Part shown: positions 12,531 through 45,120 of the stretch, in pieces
How positions within the stretch are numbered: position 1 is the first letter of the stretch
How the letters are laid out: each line of letters starts with the position of its first letter
Source: Eutypa lata
Taxonomy: Eukaryota > Ascomycota > Sordariomycetes > Xylariales > Diatrypaceae
Reading direction: 5' to 3'
Length of the DNA stretch: 64,000 nt
Assembly: GCA_022661535.1 (NCBI GenBank)
Contig: JAKULF010000010.1
Coordinates: 2,790,001 to 2,854,000, forward strand
Made by a program: the position numbers and the translations under genes
The notes under the pieces: model-generated
What the model was told of the DNA's origin: nothing
Databases searched by the model: none
What the model saw: the letters and a program-made list of their open reading frames with translations, nothing else

Positions 12531-13925
12531 ATGAAGTTCTTCGCTCGCCTTTCCTGTCTAGCCGCCTTGGCTAACGCCGCCGTCGTCGACCTGGCGAAGA
12601 GGGAGTCACCCCTCGACGTCCAGCTCGAGATGGTCGGCAACAGCGAGGTCAAGGCCAGCATCACCAACACTGGTGATGAGGCCTTGAAGGTCCTCAAGAC
12701 GGGTAGCATCCTAGACTCCCGGCCCATCGAGAAGGCCGAGATCTTCCAGGGAGGTAAGAAACTCCAAAAAAAGAATTAAAACCAGAAAAAAACCCTCCCA
12801 AAAAGAACCTACCACCTAGTCTCGTACCTTGGAGTAGGTTGTTTTCACAGAAGGATCTTTGCTAACATGAGAGACTTGGTACAAAAACTCAGCCGACAAG
12901 GTCGCCTTCAGCGGAATGCGAATCTACGTGCGGGCCTCGGAGGCCGGCGCAGAGGACTTCCAGACCATCGAGGCGGGCGAGACCGTGGCGGTGCAGTGGG
13001 ACGTAGCCGAGGTGCACGACCTAAGCGCCGGTGGCGCCTTCGACATCGCAGCCACGGGCTACTTCAAGTACGCCTCCGCCTCCGCCTCCGCGTCATCTGT
13101 CACCGATAGTAGTATCGGTAGTAGCCTCGAGATTGCGGGCGAGGTCCCCTACAGCTCCAACGTCCTGACGGCGCAGGTCGACGGGGCGTCGGCAGCGCGC
13201 GTGCGCCGCGACTGGCACGACGACATGGAGAAGCGCACGGCGGTGCAGAGCGACTGCAGCACCTCGCAGAGGAGCACGATCAGCACCGCGATCGGGATCT
13301 GCCGCACGTACGCGTCCAACGCGGCGACGGCCGCGTCCTCGGGCTCCGACGCCAAGGTCACCGAGTACTTCAAGTCGGCTACGAGTAGCACGCGGAGCAC
13401 GGTCTCGTCGGTGTTCAGCCGGGTCGCATCCGAGTGCAGCAGCAGCTCGTCTGGGAACTCGCGCACGTGTAAGTACCTATTGAAACAAACACACACACAC
13501 AAGTTGATGATGTCCTACCTACCTACCGGTGCCTTTCACGTTCTGTTATTGGAATAGAACCTTCCACAAGATATGATATGATAATTTTAAAAATGGCATA
13601 CTAACTTAATTTCTTAACCAAAATAGACTGCTCGGACCGCGCCAGTGCCTGCAGTGGCGGTGTCATCGCCTACACCGTCCCCGCCAGCTCGTACATCGTC
13701 TACTGCACGTCGTGGTTCAGCTTACCCGCCCAGACGAGCACCTGTCACGGTGATGACCGCCCTTATGTTATTGTTCACGAGTCTACCCATCTCTCCCAGG
13801 TTGGCGGTACCGATGACTTTAGCTGCTATGGCTACTCGTGCGTGCGCAGTCTGTCTGCGTCGCAGAACCTTCGCCATGCCGATACGTATGCGCAGTTCGC
13901 GAACGCCATCGCGGTTGGTTGCTAA
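12531..13925 (+). CDS. Secreted deuterolysin-type neutral metalloprotease (M35)
   Basis: Zinc endopeptidase of family M35 (neutral protease 2), secreted as a preproprotein. Exons 12531-12753, 12893-13468 and 13627-13925 give 365 residues; both introns (139 and 158 nt) are GT-AG and keep the frame. Residues 1-17 form a signal peptide (MKFFARLSCLAALANA). A propeptide of about 170 residues ends at a Kex2-type Lys-Arg near residue 189 (DDMEKR, then TAVQSDC), leaving a mature enzyme of about 176 residues, the usual deuterolysin size. The catalytic zinc motif HESTH is at 317-321, followed by GGTDDFSCYGY at 326-336, the aspzincin GTxD signature that supplies the third ligand; it has one residue more before the YG than the usual GTxDxxYG. 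The mature part has several paired cysteines. An upstream TATA box and a downstream AATAAA flank the gene. Probably used in extracellular protein breakdown. Confidence 0.94.
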
Positions 13926-18263: not shown

Positions 18264-18362
18264 TACCCGTGGGCCTATGGAAGGGAACCGCAGGCCCTAC
18301 CCACTTCGCATCCGATCCGAAGTGGGTAGGGCCTGCGGTTCCCTTCCATAGGCCCACGGGTA
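18264..18362. repeat. Perfect 45-bp inverted repeat with 9-nt loop
   Basis: Left arm 18264-18308 and right arm 18318-18362 are exact reverse complements over 45 bp, separated by the 9-nt loop CATCCGATC. The outermost bases beyond the arms (A at 18263 and A at 18363) do not pair, so the repeat is sharply bounded. The arms are much more GC-rich than the surroundings. A transcript from either strand would fold into one uninterrupted 45-bp stem. It lies about 480 bp upstream of the start codon of the GH106-like gene. Transposon foot, small-RNA precursor, or regulatory cruciform are all possible; nothing in the sequence decides. Confidence 0.95.
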
Positions 18363-19500: not shown

Positions 19501-19682
19501 GCTTATAACGTAATTTATATGGGATTTTTATATATTGTATAATTTATAACGTAATTTATCGAAGTTATAATTAATAATTATCGATTATTATTAAATATAA
19601 TTTATAAATCTTTTATTAATAATTAATATATATTTATATATAAAATATTAATATATAATTCGTAAATATTATTATAATTTAT

Positions 19683-19897
19683 TATTAATAAATAAAATGC
19701 TTTAATAACGGTTTATAATAATAGTAAAAGATTAAACATCGAAAGTGTTTTAAGGTATTACGTGTAATATTTAAAGTATAAAAATTAATATATAATTTAA
19801 GTTTATAATTAAATTAATATAAACTTTTTTAAATAATAATATATATTTTATTTTTCGAAAGTTATTTAAAATTAATATTTATTTACGTATTTTAATA
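19683..19897 (+). repeat. Left LTR (215 bp)
   Basis: Aligns without a gap to 26671-26885. By eye there are about 25 differences, every one a transition (C/T or G/A), as expected when two copies were mutated independently by RIP. It starts TATTAATAA and ends TTTTAATA, consistent with TG...CA ends changed to TA...TA. The sequence before it is TTTAT, the target duplication. Confidence 0.9.
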
Positions 19898-22800
19898 TAA
19901 TAATAATTTCGATTTTATAAATTAATAATTAAAAGATTTATACGAAAATAAATACATTATTTATAATAACGTTTTATTAATTTTAATTTAAAGAATTTAT
20001 AAAGAAAATTAATATTAATAATAACGAAAAATAAACGAACTTTTAATATTATTAAAGATTATAACGATTACGTTATTAACGGTATTTATTTTTTTTTTCT
20101 TTATTAAATTAAGTTATAATTTAATATTTTATTTTTTTAATTTAATTAAAACTTTAATAATTAAACGACTTTTTTATTTATTTAAATAATTTTATTTTAA
20201 TAATAAAAAAGTTATAAAACTTTATAAATAAATTAATTATTTAAGTTAATTTTTTAACGTTATTATATTAAATTTTTTTTTTATTAAAATTAAATATATA
20301 ATTTTTTTTTTATTAATATTTATAAATTATTATAAATTTAATAAGCTTTTTGTAATAATAAACGATATTAAAAGTATTATATATAATTTTATAAAAAAAG
20401 TTTAAATCGAAAAACGAGTTATATTAATAATGAAAGTTTAATAATAAAAGATAATAAATTAATATTAAAATGATATAAACGTTATTATAAAATAATTTAA
20501 AAATATATAAATATAAAATTTAAATTTATGCGTAAATAATCGTAACGTTAAAATTAATTTTAATTATATAATTAATAAGTTAATGTAAAATAAACGTATA
20601 AACGTTATATTTTAATAATAAATAAATATATAATTAACATTTAATAAAACTTATATAAAATAAACGTAAATATTAATAAATGCGTAATTATTAATAAATA
20701 TAAATTTATTTATTTTATAATATTTTAACGTTATAATATTAAATGTAAAAAATATATTATTTAAAGTAAAATTAAATTTAATATTTATTTTATTAAAGCT
20801 TTAATTATAAGGTTTATTTAAATATTTAATATAAAATAAATAAATAAGTTATTTATTTTTTTTTTCATTTAAATATATAAATATTTATTTTTTTTTTTAT
20901 AATGTTAATTTTATAATAAATTAAATTATATATTAAGTTTATTTAAAATTTTCGTACTTTTTATAATTTAAATAATTATACTTTATAAACTTTTATTATA
21001 ATATTTATAAATAATAATTTAAAACTTTATTAATAATTACTTTATTAAAAAGTTATTATAATTTAATTAATATCGAAATAACGAAATTAAATAAACGAAA
21101 AAACCGTGTTTTTTTTTTCTTATATTATTATAAAAAAAATTAATAAATAAATAAATTTAATAAATAATATAAAAATATATAAAGTATAAGTTTTAATAAC
21201 TTAAACTTAAGTAATTTAAACTTAAATAATTTTAATTATAATATTCGAAAAGTTTATTTTTTTAAATTTTTAAAAATAAATAAAAGCTTACGTAAATTCG
21301 TTAAAAAAAATCTTAAAAAAAAATAAAAGAAATTCTTTTTCGAAATTAAAAAAGAAAATTACTTTAAAGATTTCGATAATTAAAAACTTTAACGTAATGC
21401 TTTAAGTTTTATTTTAAAAAAAATTAATTATAAGAAAAATATAAAGTTATTTAAATTTATTAAAATTAAGTTTATAAAAGTTATTATAAAAACTTATAAA
21501 TAATATTTTTAATAATTAATTATAAATATAATTTTAAAAATTAAAATGTTAAAAACTTTATAATTTATTTTTTTAATAATTAATATAATACGTTAATAAA
21601 GTATTTAAAATAATTTTTATAACTTTAAATATAATAAAAAAAAATTTTTTATTTTTATTATATAATTTTAAAAATATATAAAAAAAATAAAGTTAATTAA
21701 TATAAAATTAAATAAAGTCGTTTATATTATAATATTTATAAACGTTATAAAAAATAAAGTTATTTATTAATATAAAATTATAAGTTTTATATTATAAATA
21801 ATTAATTATTTTATTTATAAACTTATTAAAAATTTTAATATTAAATTTTAAAATTAAATAAAAAGCATTAATAAATCGTATAAAGATGTAAAGTTATATA
21901 TTTAAAAAAGTAATAATAATAAAAAAATAAAAAAATCGAATTTATAAAAAAGAAATTAATTTAATAAGCTTTTCGTAAACGATAAAAAAAAGTTTTTTTA
22001 CTTTAATTATAACAAATATAAATATATATTTCGATATTATAAAAACGAAAAACGAAAAAGTAATAATAATAAAAGCAAAAATAAAAGTAAAGATAAAGTT
22101 ATTAATAATAATAACGATTATAATAATTATAATTATTTAATTAAATTTAACGATTTAATAATTTTAATTAAATTTAAAAATATATATAAAGGTTTTACTT
22201 TTTTAATTATTATTTTTATAAAGCGAAATATATTAAAAAAGTTATTTAAATAATATAATAAATTAACTTTTAATATTATATATTAATAAATTAAGTTAAA
22301 AGGCGTTATAATTTTAATTTTTATTAAGCAAAAAAGCGTTAAAAACGAAAAAAATATTAAAAAAATCGTATAAAAAAGCGTTTTAAACGTTATAATTATT
22401 ATTTATTAAATAATAATTTTTTAAATATATTTTATAAATAATATAAAAAACTAATTATTATAAAATAACGATTTAAATATTAATATTATTAATAACTTTA
22501 ACGATTTAATTAAAAAAACGATTAAAAGTATTAAATAAAATCGCTTCGTTATTAATATTAAAGTAAATTTTATTTATATTTTAATTATTAATATCGTCGT
22601 ATAATAATTAATTAAACTTAATAAATTTCGTTTAAATTTAATAATATCGTATATTTTAATTATTAAAAAGTTTTCGTTTAAAATATTTTTTAATAAAGTA
22701 TAATATAAAAAAACAATTATTTAAATTATAATATTTTAAAGTCGTTAAATAAAAAAGCTTTTATAATAATTAATATAAAAAGATAAAAGTTTTTATTATA

Positions 22801-25800
22801 AATTTTTAATATATTTAAACTTAAAATTAATAATAATAAATAAAAATATGTATTAAAAAGTAATAATAATAAATTAATTATTTTTTAATATATAATATTT
22901 AAGTTTAATAATAACGAAAAAGTTATAATAAACGAAAACATTATAAAAAAAATCATTTTATAATATTATTAACTTTATTATTTTAATATTAAACGCTTAA
23001 TTTAAATTATTAAACGATTTTATAATATAAACTTTAAGTTTAAAAATATTAAAGCTTTACTTTATACGGCTTATAATATAATAAAAATAAAAAAGTTTTC
23101 GTTAAAAAACACTTAAAAAAAATTAACTTATATAAGCGAAATTATATAATACGATATAAATATAATATAACTCGTATTATTACGTAATAACTTATATTAT
23201 AATTTAATAATTAAGAATTATAATTAATATTATAATATAAAGTTAATAAAAATTAAAAGTAATATTTAATAATATTTATAAAGTTATATTAAAAAAATAA
23301 TTTAATATTTTATTAATTAACTTTTTAATAAAAATAAAAAAAAAAAAATAATTTAAATTTTAAAATTAAATAATAAATAAAAATTTAATATATTTAAAAT
23401 AAATAAATTTTATAAAAAACGTAATATTAAACTTTAATTATCGTTATTTTATAATTAATATTAAAATAAAGTTATAAAACGCATTATTAAATTTATATAA
23501 AACGAAATTAAAGTTTATATAATTTAAATAAAAGTTTTTATATATTTTTAAAATTACATTATAAAAATAATTATTAAAATAATTAATAAAATAAATTAAT
23601 TATTAATTAAAAATATAATTTTTATAAAGATTTATTAAAAAAATTTAAATTTTAATAATAATTATTTACTTTATTACGAGCATTTATATATTTTAAAATT
23701 ACGTTACGTTATATTTATCGATTAAAAAAAAAGTTTAATTTAAAAAATTAATTAATTAAAGTATAAAAAGTATTTTTTTAAAATACGAAAAAAAAAGTAA
23801 TTATATTATATAATTAATAAAAAAAAAACGTTTCTTTATAATTTTTTATATTATAATATATAAAGACTTTACGAAATTAAATGTTTTTTTTAATTTAAAA
23901 AACATTATTTAATTATTTTTAAAATAAGTTTAAAAACAACTTCGTTATTAAATTAATAAAAAAAATAAATAAAAAATTAATATTTAAAACGATAATAATA
24001 ACGTTATATTTAATAATAAAACGAATAAAAAAAATAAAAAACAACTTATTAAACGTAAACGTAATCGTTTAAAAAAAAAAATTTTTAAACTTTATATATA
24101 TAACGTTTTTAAAAAACATTTTAAAATTATAATTAAATTATATTAAGCACGATTTATTTAAAAAAACGAAAATATTAACAAATATAATTTTAAATTTGAT
24201 TTTATTAATAATAATATCGTAAATAATTAAAAACGCGAATTTATAAACTTTAATAACGCTTTTAAAATAATAATATAAACTTACTTTTATATATAAATAA
24301 TATTTTTACTTAAAAAAAAACGATATAATATTTTCGAAAACCTTTATAAAATATTAAACTTTTTTAAATATTTAAAAACATATAAATTAATAACGATAAT
24401 ATTTAAAAATAATTTATTATTAAAAAAAGCTTTAATAAGCTTTAAAAAAAATTTATAAATAAAAATAATATTTATAAAAATATAAAAAAATATTAATTAA
24501 AAATCATTTAAATTTATTTTATTAATTAAAACAATATACGAATATTTAATAAACGTTATATAAATATTATTAAAAAAATTTACATTAATAAACGATTTTA
24601 AAAAGTTAAAAGCTCGTATATATATAAAAGAATTTATATAATAAAAAAATATTAATTATAATAAAATTATTATAATTATAATTTAAGTTATATATTAATA
24701 AATCCTTATAACTTTTATAACTTTATACGATTAATACATTATATAAATAAACTTTATTATAACGTATTTTAATAATAAATTAAAAAAAAACTATTTATAA
24801 AAATATTTTCGTTATTAAAAAAATACTTTAACGTATATTTTAAAAAAAAAAAAATATAAATATAACTTAAGTTATATTATTTAATTAATAAACTTTTTAT
24901 ATAAACTTAAATAAATTAATATAACTTAATAAATAAAAATTAAAATTATTTTAAAATAATTAAACTTTATAACTTTAATATTAAACGATATTATTTACTT
25001 AAATTTTAAAATAAATAATATTATAACTTTATACGTTAATAATTTTTTATTATTTAATGTAAATAAAAAACGTTTTATAAAGTTTATAAAAGTTATTATC
25101 GAAATAATTATTATTAAAAACTTAAGTAAAGTTAATTAATTTTTAAATATTTATATTATTAAATTAAGTTTTATTAATAATATACGCTTAAATTAATAAT
25201 AATACATTAAAAGATTACTTTAAATAATAAATATAAACAATATAAAACCATTATTTACTTTATTCGTTTTAAATTATAAATAATATATAATTTAAAATTA
25301 AAAAATTATTATTAAAAACGAAACATTTAAATATATAAGTTTAATTAAAAAGTTTAACTTTTTAAATTACGTAATTAAATTCGATATAATTTATATAACG
25401 TTTATTTAAATTCGATTTATAAATAACTTATTATTAAAATATATAAATTATATTAAACGTTTATCGAAATATATAAATAACATTATAAATTTATCGATTT
25501 AATATTAAACTTTAAATAAAAAACATTTACATTATAAATATAATAATTTTAAATTATTTAAAGTAATAAATTTTAATTATAATAATAATTTTAATTTAAA
25601 TAAATTAATTATAAATTATATATTTTACATAATAAAAGCTTTTATTATATAAATTTTAAAGCTTTAAATAATTATTACTTATTATATAATAAAAGCTAAA
25701 TACGTAACCTTAAGTATTATAATAATAAAAGTAATTAATATTAAAAACTTTTTATAAAAACTTAATTTAATATTTAAAAAACTTATTATTTTATTAAAAA

Positions 25801-26670
25801 ATAATATAAATATATTAAAATAAATAAAAAAAATTATAATGTTTAAAAAAAAGCGTTATATTTAAATCGATTATTATTATATACGTTAAAAAATTAATAA
25901 TAATTATATTAAAATTTAATATATTAAAACGAATAAAAATTTAATAAATAAATTTATTAAACTTTTTAATTAAAAAGTTTTTAACGAATTCGTAATAAAG
26001 TTAAACTTAAAATTAATTTAAAAGTTATTTAAAAAATTAAAAAATATATTAATTAATAAGTAAATTAAATTAATTAAAATAATAAAAAAATAATATTTAT
26101 TAAACTTTCGTTATAAAAGAAAAAAATCGTTATTTTTTAAAACCTTATATTATCGTAATATTTTTTTTATAATTATCGTATTTATTTAACTTAAAAGCTT
26201 TTCTTTTTAACATTTAATTTAAAAAATTTAAAATAACTTTTAAATTAACTTAGCTTTTATTAAATAAATTCGTTTTTATTAATTATTTTTTTTAACATTT
26301 ATAATATATAATATAAAAAAAAAAATTAATAATTAATAACTTTTAATTAAGGTTTTTCGTTATTTTTAAAGTTAAAAATTTCGAACTTTATTTAACTTTA
26401 TATAATTAATAACGTATTAATTAATAATATCGTAAGTTTTATATATAAAATTAAAAAATTTATTAATAAATAATAATTTAATTAAACTTTAAACGTATAT
26501 ATATAAATAAAGTTATTAATATTACGATATAAATAAAGCTAATAATTAAATAATTAAATTACGAAAATAAATATAAAAATTAAAAGTTTAATTTTAATAA
26601 ATTTATAATTTAATTTTTTAAGTTTTTTAAAGTTTTAAAAGAATTAATTATTTATTAATATAAAAAAACG

Positions 26671-26885
26671 TATTAATAAATAAAATACTTTAATAATAAT
26701 TTATAATAATAATAAAAAATTAAATATCGAAAATATTTTAAAGTATTACGTATAACATTTAAAGTATAAAGATTAATATATAATTCGAACTTATAATTAA
26801 ATTAATATAAACTTTTTTAAATAATAATATATATTTTACTTTTCGAAAATTATTCGAAATTAATATTTATTCGTATATTTTAATA
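26671..26885 (+). repeat. Right LTR (215 bp)
   Basis: Gap-free partner of 19683-19897. It is slightly more mutated at its left half (more A where the left copy keeps G) and less mutated near its right end (CGAAC and TTCG kept where the left copy has T/A). Followed by the target duplication TTTAT at 26886-26890 and preceded by the polypurine-tract relic. Confidence 0.9.
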
Positions 26886-27171
26886 TTTATATATAAAAAA
26901 ATAATCGTTAAGTTTCGAAATAATTAAATAATTTATAAAATTAATAACGAATATTTTATAACGAATATTAAAGTTTATTTTTATATTTTAATAAAAATTA
27001 AAATATTAAAATTAAAATTATAATATTTATTTTCGATTTTATTTTTAATTTATTTTTAAACTTTAATTATTTATATAATAAATATAATTTATTATATAAC
27101 GTAATTATTAACGTTTATCGTAACTTATTAAATCGAAGGTATTAATGTATTATAAGTAACGCAATTTATAT

Positions 27172-43817: not shown

Positions 43818-45120
43818 ATCCTATCTAGGCCATCCGCACAACCGCGCAAATCACAGGCCAGAACTACCGCCGCCCCCAACCTCCGAAATAAAAGAGAAGG
43901 AAGCAGAGAAGAAAAAAAAAACAAGAATTTAAAAAGCAGACGTCGCCTCGCAGACTACCCACCTAGGTAGTGTAACCTCAGGCGAGTGGAACGAGGACGT
44001 AGAAGGAGCCGATGGAAGAAGAAAAGACTCATAAATGAATGAATGGATACGGATACGCACGCGGTTACACAAGAAGTCCGAGATGGCATTACATTACATA
44101 CGAAACCGACTTAGAGCGATGTTGCATGGCTGGCGACTATCCCCCCCTCCTTTTCCCAGTTCCCTTCGCGCAGTGGCGGCGCCGGCAGCAGCGGCGACAG
44201 GATTTTCACAAATAAAGGAGAGCTGGATGGCGTCCAATGCCCGCCCCTATTAGTTATTGCCATCAATCAATCCAGATTACGCACGAAGAAACACCAACCC
44301 CGAAACAATTCCGTTGCCAGTCAATTAGTCAGTCTTCCCTCCCTCACGTTTTTTTTTTGCTCCTCTTCTTCTTGCATGATGATGCTGACCTCAACCATTT
44401 GTGTAACACACCCCGCAGGAACATGGGGGAATGCCAAGAAGAAGAAGAAGAAGAAGAGGAAGAGAAAAGTAATGAATGATACAGATCCAACCCAATTTCA
44501 CTACATACTTACATTCTCGCGCTTCCCATGCAGAGCTCGCCAAACGCCGGAATTGGAAACCGGGGCGAGCGAATGAGAAGTGTTACCTGCTTACCTATCT
44601 CACAGTTACCTCGTGTGTGACATCGAAGGTATACCTAAGCAGGTAACACGTAATAAAGTCGTCTACATGATGACTATTAGCCGTAAGCTGCGTTTTTGAT
44701 TTCTTTTTCTTTCTTTTTTCCTTTTAACTTTTTTTTCTTCGTCCCTTCTCTTCTCTTCGAAGGATCAATTAATATCAACGGACAATGCCGATAGATCTAC
44801 TTGACGACAAGGACATCAAACCAGCCGGGAGGCGTTCGTGTAACTTAGAAACCCATTTGTATATTACTTACCTTAAGTACCCAAGCAGACCCCGTGCCCG
44901 CGTACATGTGCCTACGTAATATACTATACTGAATTGAACACCGAGATTTCCGAATTTGGACTTCAAAAACGAAGGGGTGGAAAAGGACTTCGAGAAAGAA
45001 AAAAGCTTACTTGAACCTACATACATAGATAGTGACCTGATTGATCGACATTATCTTCCCGACAAGGCTGTTTCCCCCCGCATCAGGGATGCTGCTGAGA
45101 GGAGGCTGACTGGCTCATGG

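What the first reader, a model, noticed from the sequence alone, without database searches (positions are those of the whole stretch)
18264..18362. Flawless 45-bp hairpin with a 9-nt loop upstream of a secreted-enzyme gene
Two 45-bp arms are exact reverse complements with no mismatch, sharply bounded at both ends, in otherwise unremarkable DNA and with higher GC. Random sequence would not give this. In a genome with active RIP, paired copies normally accumulate C-to-T changes, so an intact inverted duplication suggests it is recent, below the length RIP detects, or under selection. A transcript would be an ideal Dicer substrate (milRNA-like), or the site could act as a cruciform. It may also be a foldback transposon relic or an assembly artefact.
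Basis: partly seen in the sequence, partly recalled or inferred. Interest (0 to 1): 0.75.

Follow-up and report, generated by a model that had tools for sequence, protein, structure and literature searches.

The report
Shrunken transposon hairpin in a fungus
The perfect hairpin is most likely the two end repeats of a small DNA transposon left joined back to back after its middle was lost, so it is a tidy but fairly ordinary transposon relic and not evidence of a microRNA gene.

Summary
The hairpin is real: 18264-18362, two 45-bp arms without a mismatch, 9-nt loop. Its arm is the terminal inverted repeat (TIR) of a dispersed element family in the same 54.5-Mb fungal genome: four ~0.6-kb copies with AT-rich interiors, plus a sister TIR type. 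Nineteen of 20 ends compared start with TA. An ordinary TIR of this family contains an inner palindrome, CCACTTCG-loop-CGAAGTGG. Being a palindrome, its 9-nt stem is also a direct repeat between the element's two ends (seen in copies C20 and C14, lost in C2). The window hairpin is exactly outer TIR (37) + one palindrome (25) + outer TIR (37) = 99 bp. The simplest explanation is collapse of a longer element at these palindromes. Another copy is a 47-bp hairpin with a 4-nt microhomology at its junction. Nothing found supports a milRNA, and an assembly artefact is very unlikely. No parent with the window's own loop and no transposase with these ends was found, so the superfamily (TA suggests Tc1/mariner) stays open. 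New member of a known kind.

The parts
18264..18362 (.). Whole 99-bp perfect hairpin (TIR-only element, TA at both ends)
18264..18308 (+). Left 45-bp arm
18309..18317 (.). 9-nt loop CATCCGATC
18318..18362 (-). Right 45-bp arm, exact reverse complement of the left arm
18264..18300 (+). Outer part of left TIR (37 bp), aligned to the outer TIR of the 624-bp family; contains stem GGGCCT/AGGCCC with a loop of its own
18301..18325 (.). Single central palindrome (25 bp), counterpart of the inner palindrome found in each TIR of the longer relatives
18326..18362 (-). Outer part of right TIR (37 bp), exact reverse complement of 18264-18300
18264..18265 (.). TA at the left terminus (candidate target-site duplication)
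   Evidence: 19 of 20 ends start with TA
18361..18362 (.). TA at the right terminus (candidate target-site duplication)

Best explanation
The hairpin is a minimal, TIR-only, non-autonomous DNA-transposon relic (a collapsed MITE) of a TA-bounded TIR family in this fungus. Shown: its arm is homologous to the TIRs of ~0.6-kb relatives and of a 3.0-kb stretch; TIRs of the relatives contain their own inner palindrome; the window copy is outer TIR + one palindrome + outer TIR, with lengths that add up exactly. Inferred: an older full-length copy lost everything between its two inner palindromes (single-strand annealing, replication slippage or end joining across the palindrome stems, which are also direct repeats), leaving the two outer TIRs facing each other. 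The 99-bp product is too short for RIP, so its arms stayed identical. It has no coding capacity and probably no function at this site. Whether it inserted as a 99-bp unit or collapsed in place is not decided.
For:: the arm matches four other places in the genome (best strand 83-88% over 46-58 bp); a 624-bp copy and three near-full relatives (616-624 bp; 80-86%), plus partial ones. TIRs of these copies share the TACCCGTGGGCC start (with C-to-T / G-to-A changes in some) and interiors are 7-15% GC; 19 of 20 ends start with TA (the exception, C18, starts CA; the right end of copy C7:9216-9831 was not recovered and is outside the count); in C20 the inner palindrome starts at base 36 on the left and its mirror ends 35 bases from the right end; its 9-nt stem is the longest direct repeat between the two 100-bp ends (likewise 9 nt in C14). 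The window copy divides as 37 + 25 + 37; differences from the C20 TIR lie in two predicted loops plus one T/C substitution. Second compact copy: C5:1942645-1942691, 47 bp, left-derived 32 + right-derived 19 with a 4-nt overlap. Of six incomplete copies whose junction I read, four (window, C1, C5:5279520, C18) have it inside the inner palindrome.
Against: No full-length parent with the window's own loop was found: no site but the two arms at up to 3 mismatches; E up to 10; 5 first-look candidates. No empty site was available, so TA could be the TIR end and not a duplication. In copy C2 the direct repeat is gone (longest shared word 6 bp). No transposase with these TIRs was found. The breakpoint cluster is small (4 of 6), was noticed after the fact, and leaves out three single ends whose other end was not looked at (C2:2842443, C2:2861221, C5:5948060). 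The 15-base start of the TIR at up to 2 mismatches is no commoner than its backward control (72 against 71 sites): only the 11 exact sites, and BLAST matches longer than the word, are evidence.
Confidence: 0.88

Rival explanations
1. Same TIR family and same kind of relic (so this overlaps with the best explanation), but the hairpin arose by fold-back copying: one TIR broke or stalled at its inner palindrome, the 3' end snapped back and copied the outer TIR, giving two identical arms.
For: Arms are perfectly identical. The inner palindrome of a single TIR folds as a 9-bp stem. Solo TIRs on C1 and C5 stop inside the palindrome, as expected if it is a breakage site.
Against: Perfect arms do not need copying: the two TIRs of the C20 copy are identical over their first 68 bases. 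TA at the far end then needs the copied end to have joined at a fitting place or to have transposed later. The 47-bp and 20-bp copies fit simple microhomology deletions.
Confidence: 0.12
2. A milRNA-like or other small-RNA locus: the transcript folds into a 45-bp duplex cut by Dicer and regulates genes.
For: Very stable fold (DNA parameters). [quoted passage not shown]
Against: No Rfam family in the window at gathering thresholds. The arms are explained by TE descent. No transcript or small-RNA evidence was available. PMC9757828 (passages read) advises great scrutiny of mi/milRNAs that overlap other gene products and counts TE homology as lower quality, while allowing that such loci may still be legitimate.
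Confidence: 0.04
3. Assembly or library fold-back artefact.
For: Perfect inverted duplications can be made during library preparation (recalled).
Against: Both arms end exactly at the family's TA-bounded terminus, with different flanks, and another compact hairpin of the same family exists on C5. The assembly has 29 contigs for 54.5 Mb.
Confidence: 0.02

Closest known systems
TA-flanked fungal MITEs, e.g. those of Mycosphaerella graminicola (PMC4522978; passages read)
   Same: Short, non-coding, TIR-bounded, TA ends, dispersed; that paper reports 8 of 13 MITE families with TA duplications, and no CpA bias in ten MITE families under 200 bp, which fits an unmutated 99-bp copy.
   Different: Here the interior is entirely gone, leaving a perfect hairpin. 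The 99-bp form itself was found once only. The TIR carries its own inner palindrome.
Tc1-Mariner elements and their MITEs in Sclerotinia sclerotiorum (PMC4188875; passages read)
   Same: TIR order elements with MITE derivatives of 481-813 bp; Tc1-Mariner elements insert at TA (recalled).
   Different: No transposase could be linked to the TIRs here, so membership is not shown. The 3.0-kb relative is longer than the 1.3-2.4 kb that the paper gives as general.
Foldback (FB-type) elements (recalled)
   Same: Most of the element is inverted repeat and can fold on itself.
   Different: No tandem-repeat structure inside the arms. Arms are only 45 bp and match ordinary TIRs.
Stowaway-type plant MITEs (recalled)
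   Same: TA target, stable hairpins.
   Different: Different host kingdom; no sequence link tested.

Membership tests
MITE (non-autonomous TIR element) | Terminal inverted repeats shared with dispersed copies | tested here: met
MITE (non-autonomous TIR element) | No coding capacity | tested here: met
   99 bp, fully accounted for by TIR and palindrome; no stop-to-stop frame of 90 aa or more overlaps it
MITE (non-autonomous TIR element) | Target-site duplication | tested here: inconclusive
   TA at both ends; nothing longer in the 6 copies for which both flanks were listed, read by eye; no empty site to prove duplication
MITE (non-autonomous TIR element) | The same form present in several copies | tested here: not met
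   The 99-bp form with this loop was found once; only the wider TIR family is multi-copy
MITE (non-autonomous TIR element) | Derived from a known autonomous element | tested here: inconclusive
   A 3,029-bp stretch has matching ends but an AT-rich interior with no Pfam match
Tc1/mariner (incl. pogo/Fot1) | TA target site | tested here: inconclusive
   19 of 20 ends start with TA, but no empty site shows that it is the target
Tc1/mariner (incl. pogo/Fot1) | DDE transposase between matching TIRs | tested here: not met
   Five DDE_1/DDE_3 places in the genome; within 1.5 kb on either side the TIRs match none better than E 0.099, in AT-rich DNA
FB foldback element | Long arms built of internal tandem repeats | tested here: not met
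   No direct-repeat family of 12 nt or more lies within the arms
milRNA locus | Stem-derived 20-24-nt RNA with strand and phase bias | not testable with these tools
   No small-RNA reads held; no Rfam match

The most novel reading that the evidence does not exclude
The TIRs of this family carry built-in palindromes, and because a palindrome's stem is also a direct repeat between the two ends, the family has a built-in route to collapse into perfect, RIP-proof hairpins. The window copy and the 624-bp type differ almost only in the loops of two stem-loops in the TIR (the sister type differs at a few other places as well), which would suggest that the stems, possibly as cruciforms, matter for transposition.
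Probability: 0.2. Interest if true: 0.45.

Novelty: new member of a known kind. Interest (0 to 1): 0.25.

Why it matters
It explains a striking perfect hairpin in a genome with RIP-like AT-rich blocks without invoking a new RNA gene. It also gives a concrete, testable route by which TIR transposons with internal palindromes could shrink to hairpins too short for RIP.

Tried and rejected
Considered and rejected: chance; known structured RNA (no match at gathering thresholds); further copies in the window (only the two arms; 20 of 100 shuffles also gave two or more hits at up to 3 mismatches, so that scan alone proves nothing); a link to the neighbouring AT-rich block (the 3.0-kb relative matches the block no better than it matches 8 of 8 composition-matched resamples; for the C20 copy the real block gave 8 matches against 0-4, with a best score inside the resampled range).

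Rows dropped: two of the three one-mismatch sites (C2:2213108, in apparently coding DNA, and C16:292965) were not counted as family members; the two-mismatch sites were ignored as background. In one search, of 53 matches only those reaching the TIRs were used; the others, about 66-80% over parts of the AT-rich interior, are probably composition.

Led nowhere: a full-length parent with the window's loop; a transposase with matching ends; six-frame reading of the AT-rich 3.0-kb relative (no Pfam family at E up to 1 for 12 of 12 translations); the TIR letters in print (eight papers with 11-letter matches, none about a fungal transposon by title); papers on RIP-escaping fold-back MITEs, MITE origin, RIP length, TA MITEs and milRNA-MITE links (listings only, apart from three papers of which I read passages). 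A second small palindrome in the window (44580-44649) found no relative in the genome.

Full report
Observation. The window contains a 99-bp perfect hairpin at 18264-18362: 45-bp arms, 9-nt loop, 64% GC. The next longest perfect hairpin in the window with a loop up to 60 nt has 16-bp arms and is in AT-rich DNA. Ten Markov-1 resamples of the 56.5 kb outside the AT block gave longest arms of 10-12 bp. Chance is excluded.

It belongs to a dispersed family. Searching the window's own genome (54.5 Mb, 29 contigs) with the 99 bp gave, besides itself, matches at C20 (two, facing each other, 624 bp end to end), C2 and C1. The 624-bp C20 element then found three near-full relatives: C7:9216-9831, C2:3031580-3032203 and C14:2305298-2305919. 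A sister TIR type (TACCTGTGGGCCTTTAGG...) occurs at both ends of a 3,029-bp stretch on C7 (170263-173291) and at single ends on C2 (two) and C5 (two). Further remnants are a 47-bp hairpin on C5:1942645-1942691, a 20-bp remnant on C11 and a degraded end on C18. The tool says that its counts are lower bounds. The 15-base start CCCGTGGGCCTATGG gave 11 exact sites and 3 with one mismatch; with up to two mismatches it gave 72 sites against 71 for the backward control, so the looser hits were not used.

Ends. I compared 20 element ends, the window's two included; 19 start with TA and one (C18) with CA. The right end of the C7:9216-9831 copy was not recovered and is not counted. In the six copies for which both flanks were listed I see no duplication longer than TA (by eye). 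Without an empty site TA may be a target duplication or simply the end of the TIR.

Anatomy. A single 624-bp-type TIR folds into two stem-loops, one with stem GGGCCT/AGGCCC and one CCACTTCGC-ATTC-GCGAAGTGG; the window half and the sister type fold alike. In the C20 copy the inner palindrome begins at base 36 and its mirror ends 35 bases before the right end. Its stem CCACTTCGC is the longest direct repeat between the two 100-bp ends; C14 also has nine (CCATTTCGC), but in C2 the longest shared word is 6 bp. The window hairpin reads outer TIR (37) - one palindrome (25) - outer TIR (37), the two outer parts being exact reverse complements. Against the 624-bp type it has two more bases in the first loop and three more in the second, so 2 x (35+2) + (22+3) = 99. 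Between the window arm and the C20 TIR the differences are in the first loop, one T/C substitution, and the second loop; against the sister type there are a few more outside the loops.

Mechanism. Because the inner TIR segment is a palindrome, its stems are at once part of the inverted repeat and a direct repeat between the element's two ends. A deletion between them removes the interior and leaves what is seen. Two other copies fit shorter microhomology deletions: the 47-bp hairpin has a 4-nt overlap between left- and right-derived parts, and the 20-bp remnant a 3-nt overlap, though its left five bases could be host DNA. Of six incomplete copies whose junction I read, four (window, C1 solo, C5:5279520 solo, C18) have it in the inner palindrome. 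This is a small, post hoc count, and three further single ends whose other end I did not see are left out. A fold-back copying origin is possible but not needed, since the two TIRs of the C20 copy are identical over 68 bases.

RIP. Against a least mutated copy, six other TIRs of the 624-bp type show 63 changes in the C-to-T / G-to-A direction and 10 others; four sister-type TIRs show 45 and 5 (sums). The reference was chosen as the copy with least change, which biases the direction, and CpA (26 of 63) is only slightly ahead of CpT (22). Over whole elements the picture is weaker: 60 against 40 for C2, 57 against 63 for C14, 68 against 16 for C7:9216-9831, gaps apart. Element interiors have CpA+TpG against ApC+GpT counts of 19/26, 3/13, 9/14 and 11/23 and TpA/ApT of 0.97-1.07. 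So RIP is likely for the family but not proven in every copy. The AT-rich block in the window is clearer: 8.7% GC and a (CpA+TpG)/(ApC+GpT) ratio of 0.15, against 1.13 outside. The 99-bp copy shows no difference between its arms. PMC4522978 (passages read) gives about 400 bp as the usual RIP threshold and reports MITE families under 200 bp without CpA bias, so an intact 99-bp copy is expected.

Superfamily. DDE_1 gives four places and DDE_3 one in this genome. None has the family's TIRs within the 1.5 kb held on either side (best E 0.099, AT-rich). Reading the 3.0-kb relative in six frames gave no Pfam match. TA ends suggest Tc1/mariner, but membership is not shown.

Surroundings. The hairpin lies 476 bp upstream of a minus-strand ATG (17788). 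A downstream exon of that gene has 37 homologues, 10 of them with precomputed PF17132. The site is 1.1 kb from the AT-rich block. The nearest named homologues of another window gene are from Monosporascus (37-41%) and of this one from Paraconiothyrium (49%), so the host is probably an ascomycete; I did not identify the species. Nothing found shows that the hairpin is transcribed or regulates the gene.

Verdict. A TIR-only, collapsed MITE-like relic: new member of a known kind, low-to-moderate interest. Superfamily and mode of arrival remain open.

Noticed in passing
window 19501-27100: AT-rich block, 8.7% GC, with a strong RIP-like dinucleotide signature, 1.1 kb from the hairpin.
   Followed up: partly
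window 44580-44649: Second small GC-normal palindrome: 14-bp perfect arms, 42-nt spacer; no relative found elsewhere in the genome.
   Followed up: partly
G000:C7:170263-173291 (L071, L066): 3,029-bp stretch with sister-type TIRs at both ends and about 1-10% GC inside, beside a right-hand TIR of ordinary GC.
   Followed up: partly
G000:C2:2842443 (L069) and C2:2861221 (L067): Two sister-type TIRs facing each other 18.8 kb apart, with AT-rich DNA on the inner side of both; may be one large or nested element.
   Followed up: no
L040, L042 (C20 and C2 copies): Interiors are 7-15% GC while one or both TIRs are nearly unmutated, as if degraded copies with working ends had been moved again later.
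   Followed up: no
window 12871-13922: M35 metalloprotease (deuterolysin / Aspzincin) gene pieces near the GH106-like gene.
   Followed up: no
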